Source: Halobacteria archaeon HArc-gm2
GTDB taxonomy: Archaea; Halobacteriota; Halobacteria; Halobacteriales; Haloarculaceae
Length of the DNA stretch: 64,000 bases
Reading direction: 5' to 3'
Assembly: GCA_025517465.1 (NCBI GenBank)
Contig: JAOPKE010000003.1
Coordinates: forward strand, 434,001 to 498,000
In this document: positions 4,548 through 46,203 of the stretch, one piece after another
How the letters are laid out: every line of letters begins with the position of its first letter
How positions within the stretch are numbered: position 1 is the first letter of the stretch
The notes under the pieces: generated by a model
Told to the model about the DNA's origin: nothing
What the model saw: the letters and a program-made list of their open reading frames with translations, nothing else
Databases searched by the model: none
Program-made: the position numbers and the translations under genes

Positions 4548-5727
4548 GCGCGACAGGGGTTCGACGCGGGAGCGTCTGCGCGGCCGTCGCCGGTTCCTCG
4601 CCGGACTCGGGGCCGCCGGTATCGGCGGACTCGCGGGCTGTAGCGGCCTGCTGGGCGAGGACGGATCGGACGGCGGCGGAGCGGGCAACGAGACCAGCGC
4701 CGGCGAGGCCGGCTTCGGCGAGTTCCGCGGCTCCGGCCCGCTGGCCGAGGACCGCGAGGAACTGCAGGGCACCCGCATCGCCGACCTCCCCGACCTCTCG
4801 GGCGAACTGACGATCTACCTGGGCGGCGGCGAGGGCGGGCTCTACCGCGACCTGCTCGCGCGCTTCCAGGAGATCTACCCCGACTTCACCGTCAATCCCC
4901 GCGAGTCGGGCACCGCAGACGCCGCGAACACGATCATCAGCGAGGGCGACGCGACGCCGGCCGACGTGTTCTGGTCTGTCGACGCCGGGTCGCTCTCCGC
5001 GGTTGCCAACGAGGGACTCACCGCCTCGCTTCCCTCGGAAGTCGTCGACCCGGTCCCGGAGGAGTTCCATCCCGACGACGCGTGGGTCGGGACCGCCGGG
5101 CGCGCCCGCGCGGTGCCGTACAACACGAACGAGCTCTCGGCCGACGACGTGCCGGACACCGTCATGGACTTCCCGGAGACCGAGGGGATGGCCAGCGCGA
5201 TGGGGTGGGCGCCGACCTACGGCGCCTTCCAGGCGTTCGTCACCGCGATGCGGCTCATCGAGGGCGAGGACGCCACCCGCCAGTGGCTCCAGGACATGGT
5301 CGACGCGGGCGTCTCGGAGTACAACAACGAGTTCCTGGTGTCGAACGCCGTCGCGGACGGCGAGTTGAACGCCGGCTTCGCCAACCACTACTACGCGCTG
5401 CGCGTACAGGCCTCGCGTCCCGACGCGCCCCTCGACCTGGCCTTTACGAGCGGTGACGCGGGCGCACTGATCAACGTCGCCGGCGCGGCCGTCCTCGGCG
5501 CGAGCGAGAACACCCAGCTGGCGAACACCTTCCTGCGCCACCTGCTGTCGGCGGAGGCCCAGGAGTTCTTCGCCACCAGGACGTACGCCTACCCGATGGT
5601 CGAGGGTATCCCGCCGGTCGGCGGCCTCCCCTCCATCGACGAACTGAACCCGCCGTCGATCGACCTCTCGGAGCTCTCTGACCTCCAGCCGACGCTCGAA
5701 CTGATGCGGGAGGTGGGCGTCCTCTGA
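4540..5727 (+). CDS. Iron(III)-type ABC transporter substrate-binding lipoprotein
   Basis: The 395-residue protein starts at the ATG at 4540, which overlaps the previous stop and is followed by a TAT signal (GRRRFLAGLGAAGIGGLAGC) with the lipobox Cys near residue 34. A Gly-, Asp- and Ser-rich linker follows. The mature part has the two-lobed fold of the FbpA/FutA and thiamine-binding group: YLGGGEGGLYRDLLARF near the start and an NHYYALR segment resembling the paired-Tyr iron ligands of ferric-binding proteins. It shares one base with the permease. Operon context and upstream DtxR-type sites favour iron over thiamine or phosphonate. Confidence 0.85.
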   Translation: MTERDRGSTRERLRGRRRFLAGLGAAGIGGLAGCSGLLGEDGSDGGGAGNETSAGEAGFGEFRGSGPLAEDREELQGTRIADLPDLSGELTIYLGGGEGGLYRDLLARFQEIYPDFTVNPRESGTADAANTIISEGDATPADVFWSVDAGSLSAVANEGLTASLPSEVVDPVPEEFHPDDAWVGTAGRARAVPYNTNELSADDVPDTVMDFPETEGMASAMGWAPTYGAFQAFVTAMRLIEGEDATRQWLQDMVDAGVSEYNNEFLVSNAVADGELNAGFANHYYALRVQASRPDAPLDLAFTSGDAGALINVAGAAVLGASENTQLANTFLRHLLSAEAQEFFATRTYAYPMVEGIPPVGGLPSIDELNPPSIDLSELSDLQPTLELMREVGVL

Positions 5728-13766: not shown

Positions 13767-14273
13767 GAAAGCCCTCGGCGCGCTCGCCTCGCGCGGCTCG
13801 CTGTCGTCCGAAAATCGGAGATTTTCGTGATGACGAGAGAGCGAAGCTCTCTCGAACCACGCGCCTCCCTCCGGCCGGTGCTTACTTCGCCGTGCTTCGT
13901 CGAGCCCGCCTCGCCCTTTCAGTCCTCCAGGCTCAGCTTCGCTCGCGCTGCCTCCGGCACGCGCTCGCGGATATAGCCACCACACCTCCCCGGATTCGGC
14001 GCGTCCGCGCCGAATCACGCTTCCTTCCGCAACCGCCGGGCGGTCGGCCGGGAGCGCGTGCCCGAACGAACGTGAGGGTCGCGCGACTAGGGGAAGGGCA
14101 GGGCTGCGGCGCCTGGAGGACTGAAAGGGCGAGCGGCGGTCGAACCCTCCCGGACGAAGGTGAGCCGAGTGAAACGAGGCGAACGTCGGAAGACGAGCGA
14201 AGCGAGTCTTCCGGAACAAGCACCCACCGGAGCGCAGCGAGCCCCGGAGTGGTCGAGCGCCGCGAGGGCTTTC
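13767..14273. repeat. 507-bp element with 11-bp terminal inverted repeats (copy A)
   Basis: It begins GAAAGCCCTCG and ends CGAGGGCTTTC. Inside are nested hairpins, an inverted pair around CGCCCTTTCAGTCCTCCAGG, and a core with CTCCCCGGATTCG and CACGCTTCCTTCCGCAA shared with copies at 49749 and 60479. The whole can fold on itself. I see no transposase frame and no clear target duplication. It could be a non-autonomous mobile element or a structured RNA locus. Confidence 0.7.
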
Positions 14274-19379: not shown

Positions 19380-19790
19380 AAGCATCGGATAGGACGGGCC
19401 CGACCGAAGGGAGGGGCCGTCGAACAGGCGAGCGGCGGTAGCCGCGAGCAGCGGCTGGGCCCGACCGGAGGGAGTAAGGAGGTCTGAGTGGAGCGAAGAC
19501 CTCCGGCAGTCCGAACGGCGACCGAACGGGAGCCGTGAGGAGTGGCCGTCGAACAGGCGAGCGGGGTCCTGGCGAGCGAAGCGAGCCAGGGCTCGGAAGA
19601 CGAACGGAGTAAGTCTTCCGGCGAACGGTGTGACCCGCGAGCAGGCTGGGCCCTCGCTGTGCTCGGCCCCAGCTTGATAGCAAGCGGTGTGCCCAGGGGC
19701 AGGTCAGACCCCCCGACGATGAACGGTGCGGACTGTTCGAAAGTACCGGACAGCGGGCTGACAGCAGGGCCCATCCTTTTTGGACTGGCC
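19380..19790. repeat. Stem-loop repeat cluster with 11-nt loops
   Basis: At least three strong hairpins occur: 19478-19504 (GGAGGTCT stem), 19568-19590 (CCTGGC stem) and 19595-19619 (GGAAGAC stem). Their 11-nt loops read GAGTGGAGCGA, GAGCGAAGCGA and GAACGGAGTAA. The stems differ while the loops keep a GARYGNAGYRA pattern. The block from 19481 to 19540 also resembles 46118-46173. No gene is present in this 450-bp gap. Confidence 0.7.
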
Positions 19791-35930: not shown

Positions 35931-36122
35931 GTCGCTCCGCTCCCCGTTCGTTTTTCGTCGGGCCCTCCCTTCGGTCGGCCCCGACCTAGCTCGCGGTTCC
36001 CGGTGGTCAACGCTCGTTGTGTAGCTGGGCCGCTCGCTTCGCTCGCGCCCCAGCCTCTGCTCGCGGGTCACTCCGTTCCCCGTTCGCAATATAGCTGGTC
36101 GCTCACTTCGTTCGCGACCAGC
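35931..36122. repeat. Stem-loop repeats upstream of larB (reverse orientation)
   Basis: Hairpins at 36024-36054 (stem GCTGGGCCGC/GCGCCCCAGC) and 36094-36122 (stem GCTGGTCGC/GCGACCAGC) have 11-nt loops TCGCTTCGCTC and TCACTTCGTTC, the reverse complement of the GARCNNAGYGA loop seen elsewhere. A weaker CGGG/CCCG hairpin lies between them. They fill the gap before larB together with featureless DNA from 35750 to 35930. Confidence 0.7.
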
Positions 36123-41925: not shown

Positions 41926-42804
41926 TCAGTCCTCGGTCGCAGTCGGGTAGTCGGTGCCCAGCAGGTCGTCGGCCGAGGCGGGCTCGTCCTCGGCCTCGGC
42001 GGCGGGGCTCACGCTCCCGGTCTGGTAGCCGTGCAGGTCCAGCGTGACGTGGTCGAAGCCGACGTCGGCGATGTGGTCCCGGGCCGCCCGGACGAAGTCC
42101 GGATCCAGCGCCACGTCGAGTTCCTCCTCGCCCACTTCGATGCGTGCGAGGCCGTCGTGGTCGCGCACGCGGAACTGCTCGAAGCCCCACGTCCGGAGGA
42201 GGCGTTCGGCCTTCTCGACGCGGGAGAGGCGGTCCTCGGTGACCTCCAGGCCCGTCGGGATGCGCGAGGAGAGACACGCCATCGAGGGCTTGTCCGCCAC
42301 CGAGAGGCCGTACTCGCGGGCGATCTCTCGCACTTCCTCCTTGGTGATGTCGTGTTCGAGCAGCGGGGAGTAGGCGTTCAGCTCTTCGACGGCGCGGAGG
42401 CCCGGGCGGTGGCCCTCGCCGGGGTCGGACGCGTTGGTGCCGTCGCAGACCACGTCGATCCCCTGCTCGCGGGCCTCGTCGTACATGGCCGAGAGGCGCA
42501 TCGACCGGCAGTGGTAACAGCGCTCGTCGTCGTTGGCGACGAACGACTCGCTGTCGAGTTCGGAGAACTCCACGATCTCGTGACGGATGCCGATCTCCTC
42601 GGCGACGCGGTTGGCGTCCTCGAGTTCGGCCGCCGGGAGCGTCTCGCTCTTGGCGGTACAGGCGACGGCGTCGTCGCCGAGCGCGTCGTGGGCGATTGCG
42701 GCGACGACCGAGGAGTCGACGCCCCCGGAGAAGGCGATCAGGACGGCGTCACGCTCGGCGAGGTCGGCGCGAGCAGCGTCGAGTTTGGCCGCGACGGCAG
42801 TCAT
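41926..42804 (-). CDS. larE: ATP-dependent sacrificial sulfur transferase LarE
   Basis: The 292-residue protein has the PP-loop LIAFSGGVDSSVVAAIAHD near residue 22, GIDVVCDGTNASDPGEGHRP and DKPSMACLSSRIPTGLEVTE. LarE activates the biscarboxylated mononucleotide with ATP and inserts sulfur for the nickel-pincer cofactor. A CYHCR segment near residue 98 gives extra Cys residues, which may mark a cluster-dependent rather than sacrificial-Cys type. I use the ATG at 42804; the frame runs much further upstream through unrelated DNA. It pairs functionally with larB at 36166. Confidence 0.92.
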   Translation of the reverse strand: MTAVAAKLDAARADLAERDAVLIAFSGGVDSSVVAAIAHDALGDDAVACTAKSETLPAAELEDANRVAEEIGIRHEIVEFSELDSESFVANDDERCYHCRSMRLSAMYDEAREQGIDVVCDGTNASDPGEGHRPGLRAVEELNAYSPLLEHDITKEEVREIAREYGLSVADKPSMACLSSRIPTGLEVTEDRLSRVEKAERLLRTWGFEQFRVRDHDGLARIEVGEEELDVALDPDFVRAARDHIADVGFDHVTLDLHGYQTGSVSPAAEAEDEPASADDLLGTDYPTATED

Positions 42805-43014
42805 GGGCTGTCGTTCGGTACGCGGAGAGAAAAGTCCGTTGCGTCTCGCGCAGTGCCCCAGTTCGATTGACACGACGGTGTCCGCCGTGACCACGACCCC
42901 GGTTAGACGGCCGCCAACAGCCGTCTCCTCCCCGCAGATCCCGGCGACGTCCGGCGGTCCGATGACGCGCGTCATACGCACTTTTACAACCGAGAATCGC
43001 GAACTCACAGCTCC

Positions 43015-43791
43015 ATGGGGGTCTATACCATCGCGGGCGGCAAGGGCGGCGTCGGCAAGTCCACGACGACGGCGTCGCTCGGCGTCGCGTTGCACGACGC
43101 CGGCTTCGACGTCGTCCTGGTCGACGCCGACCTGGCACTGCCGAACCTCGCCGAGGTCCTCGGCGAGCCGAACGAATCGGGAATCCACTCGGTACTGGCG
43201 GGCGAGGCGGCCGTCGACGACGTCCTCCGCGCAGTCGCTGACGGGCCGGACCTGATCGCCGGCGGCCAGACCATCGAACACTTCGAACAGGCCGACCCGG
43301 CGAACCTGCGGGCGGTGATCGACCCGCTCGACGACGAGTACGACGTCGTCCTGGTCGACACCGGCGCGGGGCTGAGCCACGAGGCGCTCGTCGCGACGGG
43401 GCTGGCCGACGGGACCGTGCTGGTGACGACGCCACAGGAAGCGGCCGTCGACAACGTCGCCAAGACCGCCGAGTTCGTCGACCACGCCGAGGCGACGGTA
43501 CTGGGCGCCGTGGTGACGCGGACGACTGCGGACACCGACCTCGGCGACATCGCCGGCCGACTCGGCGTCCCCCTCCTCGGCGCGGTTCCGGAGGACGCCG
43601 CCGTCGACGCGGCGCCCGCCACCAGCGGCGCGGCGGGCGACGCCTACCGCTCGCTCGCCTCGACGCTCGCGACCTGCCACGACGGCTGGGAAGACGGTGA
43701 GGAGGGAGCCGTCGACGCCCCCGCGAGCGTGGCCCTCGACGCCCCCCAGCGGCGCGGGCCGACCGGAACCGAGAGCGTCTCGGCGGACTAG
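43015..43791 (+). CDS. MinD/ParA-family P-loop ATPase
   Basis: The 258-residue protein has the deviant Walker A GGKGGVGKSTTTAS at residues 8-21, switch I DADLALPNLAEVLG and Walker B VVLVDTGAGLSHEAL. Haloarchaeal MinD proteins influence positioning of motility and chemotaxis structures or other polar assemblies. No clear amphipathic membrane-targeting helix is visible at the C-terminus, which instead ends in a low-complexity stretch. The stem-loop array begins 8-12 bases after its stop. Confidence 0.88.
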   Translation: MGVYTIAGGKGGVGKSTTTASLGVALHDAGFDVVLVDADLALPNLAEVLGEPNESGIHSVLAGEAAVDDVLRAVADGPDLIAGGQTIEHFEQADPANLRAVIDPLDDEYDVVLVDTGAGLSHEALVATGLADGTVLVTTPQEAAVDNVAKTAEFVDHAEATVLGAVVTRTTADTDLGDIAGRLGVPLLGAVPEDAAVDAAPATSGAAGDAYRSLASTLATCHDGWEDGEEGAVDAPASVALDAPQRRGPTGTESVSAD

Positions 43792-44038
43792 TCTCGTCGG
43801 CGTCCGGCCGAACTGCGTGAGGCCGGGCTCGGGAGACGAGCGGAGCGAGTCTGTCGGCGTCCACGCGAACAAAGTGAGCGTGGGCTCGATAGACGAACGA
43901 AGTGAGTCTATCGGCGTCCTGTCGAGCGCAGTGAGACAGGGCTCATCGGATGAGCAGCGCGAATCCGATGGCGTGCGACCGGACGCGTGTGAGAGCGACA
44001 ACCCTTTTGCCGAACGGGCGGGTACCCGGTCACAGTCA
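43792..44038. repeat. Array of six stem-loops with 11-nt loops
   Basis: Hairpins lie at 43804-43826, 43834-43852, 43861-43883, 43887-43913, 43918-43940 and 43944-43970. Stems of 4-8 bp all differ, yet every loop is exactly 11 nt and starts GA and ends GA (GAACTGCGTGA, GAGCGGAGCGA, GAACAAAGTGA, GAACGAAGTGA, GAGCGCAGTGA, GAGCAGCGCGA). Linkers alternate between GGCTCG-like and TCGGCGTCC-like. The array fills the gap between minD and the MutS-like gene and stays open in one frame. Confidence 0.85.
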
Positions 44039-46114
44039 ATGGACCTCGAATCGGTCTCGGGCGTCGGCAGCAAGACGGCCGACGCCCTCGCCGAACTCGA
44101 CGACCCGGAGCGCGCGCTCCGCGAGGGCGACGTCGCCGAACTGGCCCGCGCCCCCGGGATCAGCGAGGGGCGGGCCGCCCGCATCGCTCGCGCGGCTATC
44201 CGGGACGACCACGACGACCCCGGCGGGTTCCTGGCGACCGACCGCGCCCGCGAACTCTACCGGGACGCGCTCGACCTGCTCCAGGCGCGGACCGTCACGG
44301 ACTACGCCGCCAAACGCCTCGAGACGATCTACCCCAGTTCGGTTCCCGGGCGCATCGAAGCGGTCCGGGAGTTCGCCGAGCGAGCGATGGACCGTGAGCC
44401 CGACGCGGACGTGCTGGCCGCCCTGGAGGACGTCGAGCCACTCGTCGAACCCGGCGACGTCCGCGTCAGGGACCGGTGTCTCGCGACGAGCGACGCCGAG
44501 CGCTACGCCGAGGCACAGTCCGCGATTCCCGAGATATCGGTGGAAATCGTCGACGACACCCGCCAGCTCGCCGAGCTCGGGCGCAGCTACGCGACGGTCG
44601 TCGCGCTGGACGAGTCCTTCGCCGGCGTCGAGGTTGCGGGCGACGTCCGCGTCGAACCGGACGCTCTGGAGAACCCGGCCGACGTCGTCCCCGAGCGCCC
44701 GCTGGCCTTCTTCGCGCGCAATCGGGACCGCCTGCAGGCCGCGGCGAAAGTGCATCGGGTCGCGGACCTGGAGCCGGCCTGTGATCTGGACGCCCTCGAA
44801 TCGGCGCTCGACCGCCTCAACGAGGACGGCAGCGTCCGCGACGACGGCGAACTCGACCGGCTGTCGACGGCCGTCGACGACCTCGACGCCGCGGTGTCGA
44901 CGGCCGAATCGGTGGCCAACGACCATCTGCGGGAGGCCATCGAAGAGCAGGACGTCACCATCGAGGGGACGGACCTGCTATCGCTGGTCGAACGCGGCGC
45001 CGGCGTCGACTCGCTGCTCTCCCGGGAACTGGCCGACGAGTACGACCGCGCCGTCGAGAAGGCCCGCGACCACCTCGTCGACGCGCTCGACCTCCGGGAC
45101 ACCGAGGCGACCGCCCGGCGGGCGTTCCCCGACGACCCGACCTACCCCGTCGACCACGACGAGAACGCGGTGTCGCGCCTGCGCGAGGAACTGACGACTG
45201 CGCGGGACCGCCGGGCGGCCAGGCTCAAGCGCGAGGTGGCGAGCGACCTGGCAGGCCTGCGCGAGGACGCCGAGTCGCTGGTCGACGCCGCGCTCGAACT
45301 CGACGTGGAACTGGCCGTCGCCCGGTTCGCCGAGGACTTCGAATGTACGATTCCCGCCGTAGGAGGCGTCGACGGGGAGCCGGAAGACGAGCCCGGTTTC
45401 GCCATCGAGGGCGGGCGCTCGCCGCTGCTGGACGTCCCCTTCGACGACGTCGACCGGGTCGACTACCGCGTCGAGGGGATGGCCATCCTCTCCGGGGTCA
45501 ACAGCGGCGGGAAGACGTCGACCCTGGACCTGGTCGCGCTGGTGACCATCCTGGCCCACATGGGGCTGCCCGTCCCCGCCGAGTCGGCCCGCGTCGAGCG
45601 CGTCGCGGAACTCCACTACCACGCCAAGACGCAGGGCACCCTCGACGCGGGCGCCTTCGAGTCGACGTTGCGGGACTTCGGCGGACTGGTGACGGATATC
45701 AGTTCGGACCGACCGATCATGGTGCTCGTCGACGAACTGGAGTCCATCACCGAACCCGGCGCCGCCGCGACCATCATCGCCGGCATCCTCGAAGCGCTGG
45801 GCGAGCGCAACGCCACGGGCGTGTTCGTCTCCCACCTCGCGGGCGACGTCATCGACGCCGCCGACACCGACCTCACCGTCGACGGCATCCAGGCCGAGGG
45901 GCTCGTCGAGGGCGAACTCCGGGTGAATCGCTCGCCGGTCAAGGGGACGCTCGCACGCTCGACACCGGAGCTCATCGTGGAAAAGTTGGCTGAAAGCGAG
46001 GCCGAACGCAGAGAGGCCTCGAACAGCGCGAGCGACGGGGAGCGAACGGCGGCGAACGGCGGCGAGCCCGGAGGCGGTTTCTACGATGATTTGTTGGCGA
46101 AGTTTGAGGAGTAG
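44039..46114 (+). CDS. MutS-like ATPase with N-terminal helix-hairpin-helix
   Basis: Starting at ATG 44039, the 691-residue protein has an N-terminal HhH motif (LESVSGVGSKTADALAEL), a long helical middle with coiled-coil character, and a C-terminal MutS ATPase domain: Walker A GVNSGGKTSTL near residue 487, Walker B PIMVLVDELESITEPG near 560 and a VFVSHLAGDVI switch. It lacks the mismatch-recognition domain, so it resembles archaeal MutS-domain-V proteins of the MutS2/MutS5 group rather than MutS1. A CCCTTTTGC TATA-like element is about 30 bases upstream of this start. The longer frame upstream runs through the hairpin array and is unlikely to be translated. Confidence 0.85.
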   Translation: MDLESVSGVGSKTADALAELDDPERALREGDVAELARAPGISEGRAARIARAAIRDDHDDPGGFLATDRARELYRDALDLLQARTVTDYAAKRLETIYPSSVPGRIEAVREFAERAMDREPDADVLAALEDVEPLVEPGDVRVRDRCLATSDAERYAEAQSAIPEISVEIVDDTRQLAELGRSYATVVALDESFAGVEVAGDVRVEPDALENPADVVPERPLAFFARNRDRLQAAAKVHRVADLEPACDLDALESALDRLNEDGSVRDDGELDRLSTAVDDLDAAVSTAESVANDHLREAIEEQDVTIEGTDLLSLVERGAGVDSLLSRELADEYDRAVEKARDHLVDALDLRDTEATARRAFPDDPTYPVDHDENAVSRLREELTTARDRRAARLKREVASDLAGLREDAESLVDAALELDVELAVARFAEDFECTIPAVGGVDGEPEDEPGFAIEGGRSPLLDVPFDDVDRVDYRVEGMAILSGVNSGGKTSTLDLVALVTILAHMGLPVPAESARVERVAELHYHAKTQGTLDAGAFESTLRDFGGLVTDISSDRPIMVLVDELESITEPGAAATIIAGILEALGERNATGVFVSHLAGDVIDAADTDLTVDGIQAEGLVEGELRVNRSPVKGTLARSTPELIVEKLAESEAERREASNSASDGERTAANGGEPGGGFYDDLLAKFEE

Positions 46115-46203
46115 GACGGTCTGAGCGGAGCGAAGACCGTCGAAACGACGAACGGCGACCGCAGGGAGCCGTGAGGCAGGCCGGGCCCGAACGGAGTGAG
46201 GGG
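46115..46203. repeat. Stem-loop repeats after the MutS-like gene
   Basis: The hairpin 46115-46141 (GACGGTCT/AGACCGTC, loop GAGCGGAGCGA) begins right after the stop codon. Two smaller 11-nt-loop hairpins follow: CGGC/GCCG around GACCGCAGGGA, and CCC/GGG around GAACGGAGTGA. The block resembles 19481-19540. It might act as a terminator, though it has no T run. Confidence 0.65.

What the first reader, a model, noticed from the sequence alone, without database searches (positions are those of the whole stretch)
43804..43970. Array of six hairpins with variable stems but constant 11-nt GA...GA loops
Stem sequences differ and are compensated, which shows selection or copying of structure. Loops keep the consensus GARCNNAGYGA and linkers alternate between GGCTCG and TCGGCGTCC types. 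The same loop occurs at 19478-19619, 46115-46141 and, reversed, at 36024-36122. This is a structured repeat family that could be bound as DNA or RNA.
Basis: seen in the sequence. Interest (0 to 1): 0.7.

Follow-up and report, generated by a model that had tools for sequence, protein, structure and literature searches.

The report
Mobile double-hairpin repeats in haloarchaea
The six hairpins are three back-to-back copies of a 57-base repeat made of two hairpins; it is scattered through almost all salt-loving archaea tested, inserts cleanly into genes and gaps between genes, and keeps an unusual fold that only one DNA strand can form.

Summary
The six hairpins are three tandem copies (43803-43859, 43860-43916, 43917-43973) of one 57-bp unit: TC-stem5-loop-stem5'-GGCTCR-stem6-loop-stem6'-YGGYG. 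The '11-nt loop' is not open. It fits a GA/GA internal loop, two covarying base pairs and a triloop, usually GNA, and only one strand can form it. A covariance model finds the unit in 99 of 117 Halobacteriales genomes; in a phylum draw all 21 genomes with hits lie in the order. Comparison with a 92.6%-identical congener, and filled versus empty sites in a MITE, azf and tnpB, show precise 48-58 bp insertions without target-site duplication. The right end is conserved (GGYG in 46/51) and the left flank is drawn from the target (23/51), often the same motif, which explains tandem arrays. Hairpins are mostly intergenic without sense-strand bias. Best reading: a REP/IS605-miniature-like family moved as single-stranded DNA by an enzyme acting in trans. 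The expected Y1 transposase (PF01797) is not linked and is absent from several unit-rich genomes; the mover is unidentified. New variant of a known kind.

The parts
43799..43802 (+). left target motif GGCG of the array (preceded by TCTCGTC, possibly a relic of an older unit end)
43803..43859 (+). unit 1: 57-bp two-hairpin element (TC-CGGCC-GAACTGCGTGA-GGCCG-GGCTCG-GGAGAC-GAGCGGAGCGA-GTCTGT-CGGCG)
43860..43916 (+). unit 2: 57-bp two-hairpin element
   Evidence: C12:477860-477916, 79.4 bits
43917..43973 (+). unit 3: 57-bp two-hairpin element
19567..19623 (+). single 57-bp unit, inserted after the first base of the loop of another hairpin (GCGGG-G^AACGGTGTGA-CCCGC); absent from the orthologous place in congener G006
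46109..46114 (+). GAGTAG target of the second family; its TAG is the stop codon of the gene upstream
46115..46141 (+). second family, hairpin 1 (GACGGTCT-GAGCGGAGCGA-AGACCGTC)
46152..46172 (+). second family, hairpin 2 (ACGGC-GACCGCAGGGA-GCCGT)
35932..36113 (-). tandem second-family hairpins on the minus strand (loops at 35932, 36034, 36068, 36103)
14186..14214 (+). isolated hairpin TCGGAAGAC-GAGCGAAGCGA-GTCTTCCGG of the same fold
43015..43791 (+). flanking gene: MinD/ParA-like ATPase, ending just before the array
   Evidence: translation (GGKGGVGKST motif)
44040..46114 (+). flanking open reading frame with an N-terminal helix-hairpin-helix-like sequence, downstream of the array (coordinates within a base or two of its ATG)

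Best explanation
The array is three tandem copies of a non-autonomous mobile repeat of haloarchaea. Each 57-bp copy carries a left and a right hairpin, both formable only on the same strand (GA/GA internal loop, RC.GY pairs, triloop often GNA). It inserts 3' of a short motif resembling its own right end (YGGYG) without duplicating the target. Because each inserted copy recreates GGYG at its right end, further copies can land there, giving head-to-tail arrays with alternating linkers. This is the logic of IS200/IS605 miniatures and REP elements: excision and insertion as folded single-stranded DNA by an HUH-type or other strand-specific transposase acting in trans. Shown: repeat unit, fold covariation, dispersal, precise insertions, polarity of the ends, target preference, occurrence inside genes. 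Inferred: single-stranded DNA intermediate, sheared geometry of the GA pairs, and the transposase, which was not found.
For: Unit and ends: 25 full 57-bp units in the sampled G000 and G006 sequence with fixed TC...YGGYG ends; CM hits are mostly 57 nt long across the order. Covariation. Insertion polymorphism against G006: 58 bp at C12:504764, 57 bp in G006, 57 bp at window 19567, all with the same ends. Filled versus empty: MITE CCGGCG^TTCGACG; azf-like gene ...GGCA^TCTCAGAC, with the intact gene beside the filled duplicate in five genomes; tnpB RTP^IGVD with a 16-codon in-frame insert against a 79%-identical tnpB without it. No TSD: left and right tetranucleotides agree in only 19 of 51; right end GGYG 46/51, left 23/51, background 1.9% per position. 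Identical or near-identical units at several places in G079, in the same TCCTGGYG^GACTGAAAGG repeat. Strand-blind placement relative to genes. Post-divergence compensation: in 48 orthologous hairpins, 14 double paired changes against 3 double broken (6 of the 14 outside the array), and loop positions G1 A2 G10 A11 nearly invariant.
Against: No transposase is linked. None of 30 Y1_Tnp loci and essentially none of 30 TnpB loci carry this hairpin, and unit-rich genomes (G036: 36 units, G018: 31, G015: 18, G028: 17) have no PF01797 match. No longer, gene-bearing version was found in 1.46 Mb of the genome. The left target is loose (GGYG in about half). About three quarters of the hairpins in aligned regions are shared with G006 (53 of 69), so movement is not frequent at present. 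Single strandedness was not tested; the DNA folding z-score is modest (-2.5).
Confidence: 0.66

Rival explanations
1. RNA elements: the hairpins act in transcripts as terminators, stabilisers or protein-binding sites and are kept for that.
For: The folded RNA of the + strand is very stable (-86.4 kcal/mol, z -4.8, 0 of 200 shuffles) and reproduces the inner GA/GA structure; hairpins are enriched between genes (84 of 100); some lie right after stop codons (46114).
Against: Orientation relative to genes is not biased towards sense (18 sense, 26 antisense), yet only one strand can form the GA fold; copies lie between divergent genes and antisense inside tnpB; no U-tract; no Rfam match.
Confidence: 0.12
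2. Chromosomal DNA-structure sites (binding sites for a nucleoid, recombination or replication protein) under selection, whose mobility is secondary.
For: Strong fold conservation and compensatory change after divergence; two sequence families share the fold; wide retention in the order.
Against: Copy number ranges from 0 to 51 listed units among haloarchaeal genomes, and some good-quality genomes have none (G069, G102, G115); positions are polymorphic between congeners; insertions fall inside genes.
Confidence: 0.14
3. No transposase: units spread by template switching and slipped or microhomology-mediated copying during replication, and quasi-palindrome correction keeps the stems matched.
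For: Array units are exchanged between G000 and G006; partial gene duplications carry a unit (azf-like gene); stems are corrected; no transposase found.
Against: Constant 57-bp ends at unrelated places and precise empty sites in a MITE, the azf-like gene and tnpB need an end-recognising step.
Confidence: 0.1
4. Classical MITE moved by a DDE transposase with a 4-5 bp target duplication (GGYG).
For: GGYG lies on both sides of many copies.
Against: Left and right copies differ in 32 of 51 units; the left flank is loose while the right is fixed; no terminal inverted repeats.
Confidence: 0.04

Closest known systems
Bacterial REP elements / BIMEs / REPINs (GTAG- and CGTC-tagged palindromes; PMC3733652, PMC3116915)
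   Same: Short high-copy hairpins, mostly intergenic, in doublets and clusters, with a tag 5' of the stem (GGYG|TC here resembles the CGTC/TGTC tag; GAGTAG of the second family resembles GTAG and can supply a stop codon); insertion inside genes and inside other palindromes; CGTC REPs also lack a known transposase.
   Different: Archaeal; the two hairpins are head-to-tail, always on one strand, at fixed 57-bp spacing (bacterial doublets are mostly head-to-head); 11-nt loop with GA/GA and inner pairs instead of the short loops of most REPs; no RAYT (archaea have only the IS200-type Y1 subclass 1.1, PMC6006769).
IS200/IS605 miniatures, PATEs and SMRs of Haloquadratum (PMC3119063)
   Same: Sub-terminal palindromes, no inverted repeats, no target duplication, insertion next to a short motif, preference for other mobile repeats.
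   Different: Only 48-58 bp; hairpins unlike those of the genome's own IS605 element (L052: CCCACGGC..GCCGTGGG type); not linked to tnpA or tnpB.
Rickettsia palindromic elements (from memory, and as cited in PMC3733652)
   Same: Palindromic units inserted in frame in genes.
   Different: Sequence and host unrelated; here most copies are intergenic.
Extraordinarily stable d(GCGAAGC)/GNA-triloop DNA minihairpins (work named from memory: Hirao, Yoshizawa)
   Same: The core C-GNA-G of the loop is this motif in 64 of 89 hairpins.
   Different: Known mainly from in vitro work, not as a genome-wide repeat; stability was not measured here.

Membership tests
REP (GTAG/CGTC-tagged) | high-copy short palindrome, mainly extragenic | tested here: met
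   619 motif hits against 149 control in the genome; 84 of 100 intergenic
REP (GTAG/CGTC-tagged) | conserved tetranucleotide at the 5' foot of the hairpin | tested here: inconclusive
   YGTC at many copies but only about half have GGYG on the left
REP (GTAG/CGTC-tagged) | stem closed by a short loop (2-5 nt, or a long hairpin with a bulge; CGTC class 4-5 nt) | tested here: not met
   GA/GA internal loop, 2 bp and a triloop
REP (GTAG/CGTC-tagged) | associated RAYT (GTAG class) | tested here: not met
   Y1_Tnp loci lack the hairpin; unit-rich genomes lack Y1_Tnp
IS200/IS605-derived element (PATE) | sub-terminal hairpins, no TIR, no TSD, insertion 3' of a short motif | tested here: met
IS200/IS605-derived element (PATE) | ends match those of an autonomous tnpA element | tested here: not met
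IS200/IS605-derived element (PATE) | single-stranded circular intermediate cut by TnpA | not testable with these tools
   needs biochemistry
MITE (DDE) | terminal inverted repeats and target duplication | tested here: not met
Known RNA family (Rfam 15) | match at gathering score | tested here: not met

The most novel reading that the evidence does not exclude
Haloarchaea harbour a separate single-stranded-DNA transposition system whose recognition code is a hairpin fold (GA/GA internal loop plus GNA triloop) shared by at least two sequence families with different target motifs (GGYG and GAGYAG), moved by an enzyme that is not a Y1 IS200 transposase.
Probability: 0.3. Interest if true: 0.82.

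Novelty: new variant of a known kind. Interest (0 to 1): 0.62.

Why it matters
REP-type elements and their enzymes have been described in bacteria; the two surveys read here report no REPs or RAYTs in archaea. An order-wide archaeal family with a fixed two-hairpin unit, a strand-specific non-Watson-Crick fold, in-frame gene insertions and no evident transposase makes a clear search problem (find the mover). It also supplies natural examples of a stable DNA hairpin motif and a ready covariance model for annotating haloarchaeal intergenic DNA.

Tried and rejected
Rfam (no hit). tnpA and tnpB as linked mover: no matching ends. The one Y1_Tnp near units (G003, L231) proved coincidental: the units there sit in duplicated azf-like 3' ends. 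Replication-strand bias: an apparent one-sided run in the first hit list vanished on reading the sequence (35 against 27). Comparison of G036 with G048 to see movement without Y1_Tnp: too diverged to decide. K-turn/K-loop idea (GA..GA as an L7Ae site): disfavoured because positions 3 and 9 form a covarying Watson-Crick pair. My simple gene caller mis-called the MinD-like gene on the wrong strand (41926-43872), so single gene calls are approximate. First alignment of L053 with L054 used the wrong strand and was discarded. Literature: ten searches found no description of this family, but only open-access papers were searchable.

Full report
Observation. The array at 43803-43973 lies between a MinD/ParA-like gene ending at 43791 and the open reading frame starting near 44040. 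All six hairpins are real. Hairpins with a GARCNNNGYGA loop and a stem of 4 or more number 13 in the window against 0.64 in Markov-randomised windows. A scan that did not assume the motif (5-bp stems, intergenic DNA) finds GA..GA in 89 of 632 hairpins with an 11-nt loop and almost nowhere else. In those 89, positions 3-9 are GC 45, AT 30, GT 6, CG 5, positions 4-8 are CG in 76, and the triloop is GNA in 64. The 'loop' is therefore a GA/GA internal loop, two base pairs and a triloop. The complementary strand (TC..TC) cannot form it, which argues against a double-stranded palindromic operator.

The unit. A BLAST of the region against the genus showed many partial copies with shared edges. Reading them gives a 57-bp unit: TC, stem 5, loop 11, stem 5', GGCTCR, stem 6, loop 11, stem 6', YGGYG. 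The finding is three such units in tandem, so the two linker types alternate because one is internal and the other is the unit junction (YGGYG|TC). Shorter forms (about 48-50 bp) have a shorter second loop. On 25 distinct units, 95.5% of cells pair, 94 cells have compensated double changes (shuffles 27.8, none of 500 as high), and sliding by one column destroys it.

Distribution. A covariance model of the unit matches 99 of 117 Halobacteriales genomes at E 1e-3 or better, mostly at 57 nt. In an even draw of 148 genomes of the phylum, all 21 genomes with a match belong to the order. The plain loop pattern exceeds its reversed control in nearly all relatives. Named hosts of plasmid copies are Halovenus salina, Halalkaliarchaeum sp. 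AArc-CO, Halomicrobium urmianum and a Natrialbaceae archaeon.

Mobility. 504 kb of the genome was compared with the collinear part of congener G006 (92.6% identity). Of 69 hairpins in aligned segments 53 are shared and 8 absent, with the reverse similar. Absences are clean: 58 bp TCCACGC...TTTCGGTG in CCCCT^GGTCG; 57 bp in CTGGAG^GAATG; 57 bp at window 19567. Filled and empty sites are also seen in a MITE (CCGGCG^TTCGACG), in a duplicated 3' end of an NAD-dependent epimerase (azf-like, named from memory) gene with the intact gene alongside (GGCA^TCTCAGAC, five genomes), and in frame in tnpB. The right end is GGYG in 46 of 51 copies; the left neighbour is GGYG in 23 of 51 (background 1.9% per position) and equals the right end in only 19. 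This is not a target duplication but the asymmetry expected if the left motif belongs to the target and the right to the element, as in ISDra2-type IS200/IS605 insertion (from general knowledge). It explains tandem arrays.

Level of action. 84 of 100 hairpins are intergenic. Between co-directional genes 18 are sense and 26 antisense, with 20 each in convergent and divergent gaps. In orthologous hairpins the GA positions hardly change, while stems show 14 double paired and 3 double broken changes; eight of the 14 lie in the array, where whole units were exchanged, leaving six elsewhere. Outside the array the 3-9 pair changed in 17 of 46 hairpins: 7 double paired, 3 single paired, 7 broken, so the inner pair is conserved but not perfectly. 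Compensation may reflect selection, unit exchange or quasi-palindrome correction; these are not separated here.

Second family. Units GAGYAG|hairpin 1 - (spacer)GCGA-ACGGG-loop-CCCGT-GAGC AG share the fold, have another target and can repeat with a 67-69 bp period. In its second hairpin a further GA..GA step lies outside the stem. Two unrelated sequences sharing one fold suggests that the fold itself is recognised; this is inference.

Mover. The genome's single Y1 transposase element has unrelated end hairpins. Y1 loci across the order and TnpB loci in three congeners lack the unit, and several unit-rich genomes have no Y1 match. A published survey found only the IS200-type Y1 subclass in archaea (PMC6006769). 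The mover is thus a trans-acting IS200 enzyme with relaxed ends, a lost one, or an unknown enzyme.

Verdict. A real, order-wide, REP-like mobile double hairpin. It works like REP or IS605 miniatures; membership in either is not claimed because the loop architecture and the link to a transposase were tested and not met.

Noticed in passing
G000 C12 near 111680-111760 and several other places; G006 counterparts: A separate MITE of about 82 bp with inverted repeats ATAGTGGTGGTTGTAA...TTACAACCACCACTAT, polymorphic between G000 and G006 (clean presence/absence); it serves as a landing site for the 57-bp unit.
   Followed up: partly
L181, L186, L190, L193, L231: Downstream of an intact azf-like NAD-epimerase gene lies a duplicated 3' end of the same gene carrying a 57-bp unit in frame, in genomes of two families; L231 has two such duplicates.
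   Followed up: partly
G000 C12 about 221800-222000, 317600-317960, 469767-470097 (numbering, add 14000 for contig): Long mosaic intergenic repeats bounded by GAAAGCCCTCGG...CCTTTCAGTCC with many nested palindromes; favourite hosts of the unit (TCCTGGYG^GACTGAAAGG).
   Followed up: no
L173, L174, L176 (tnpB region on haloarchaeal plasmids): A 48-bp short-loop unit forms a 16-codon in-frame insert in tnpB, antisense to the gene.
   Followed up: yes
C12:258654 and 258815 (numbering); C1:364081, 767048: Further hairpin types with the same GA-loop (CACGCCC-GAGCACYGCGA-GGGCGTG followed by a T run; ACGGC..CTTCTCGC doublets) may be more families.
   Followed up: no
window 5349-5436 (-): ARAGORN reports a doubtful tRNA with a four-base anticodon; probably spurious, inside a coding region.
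   Followed up: no
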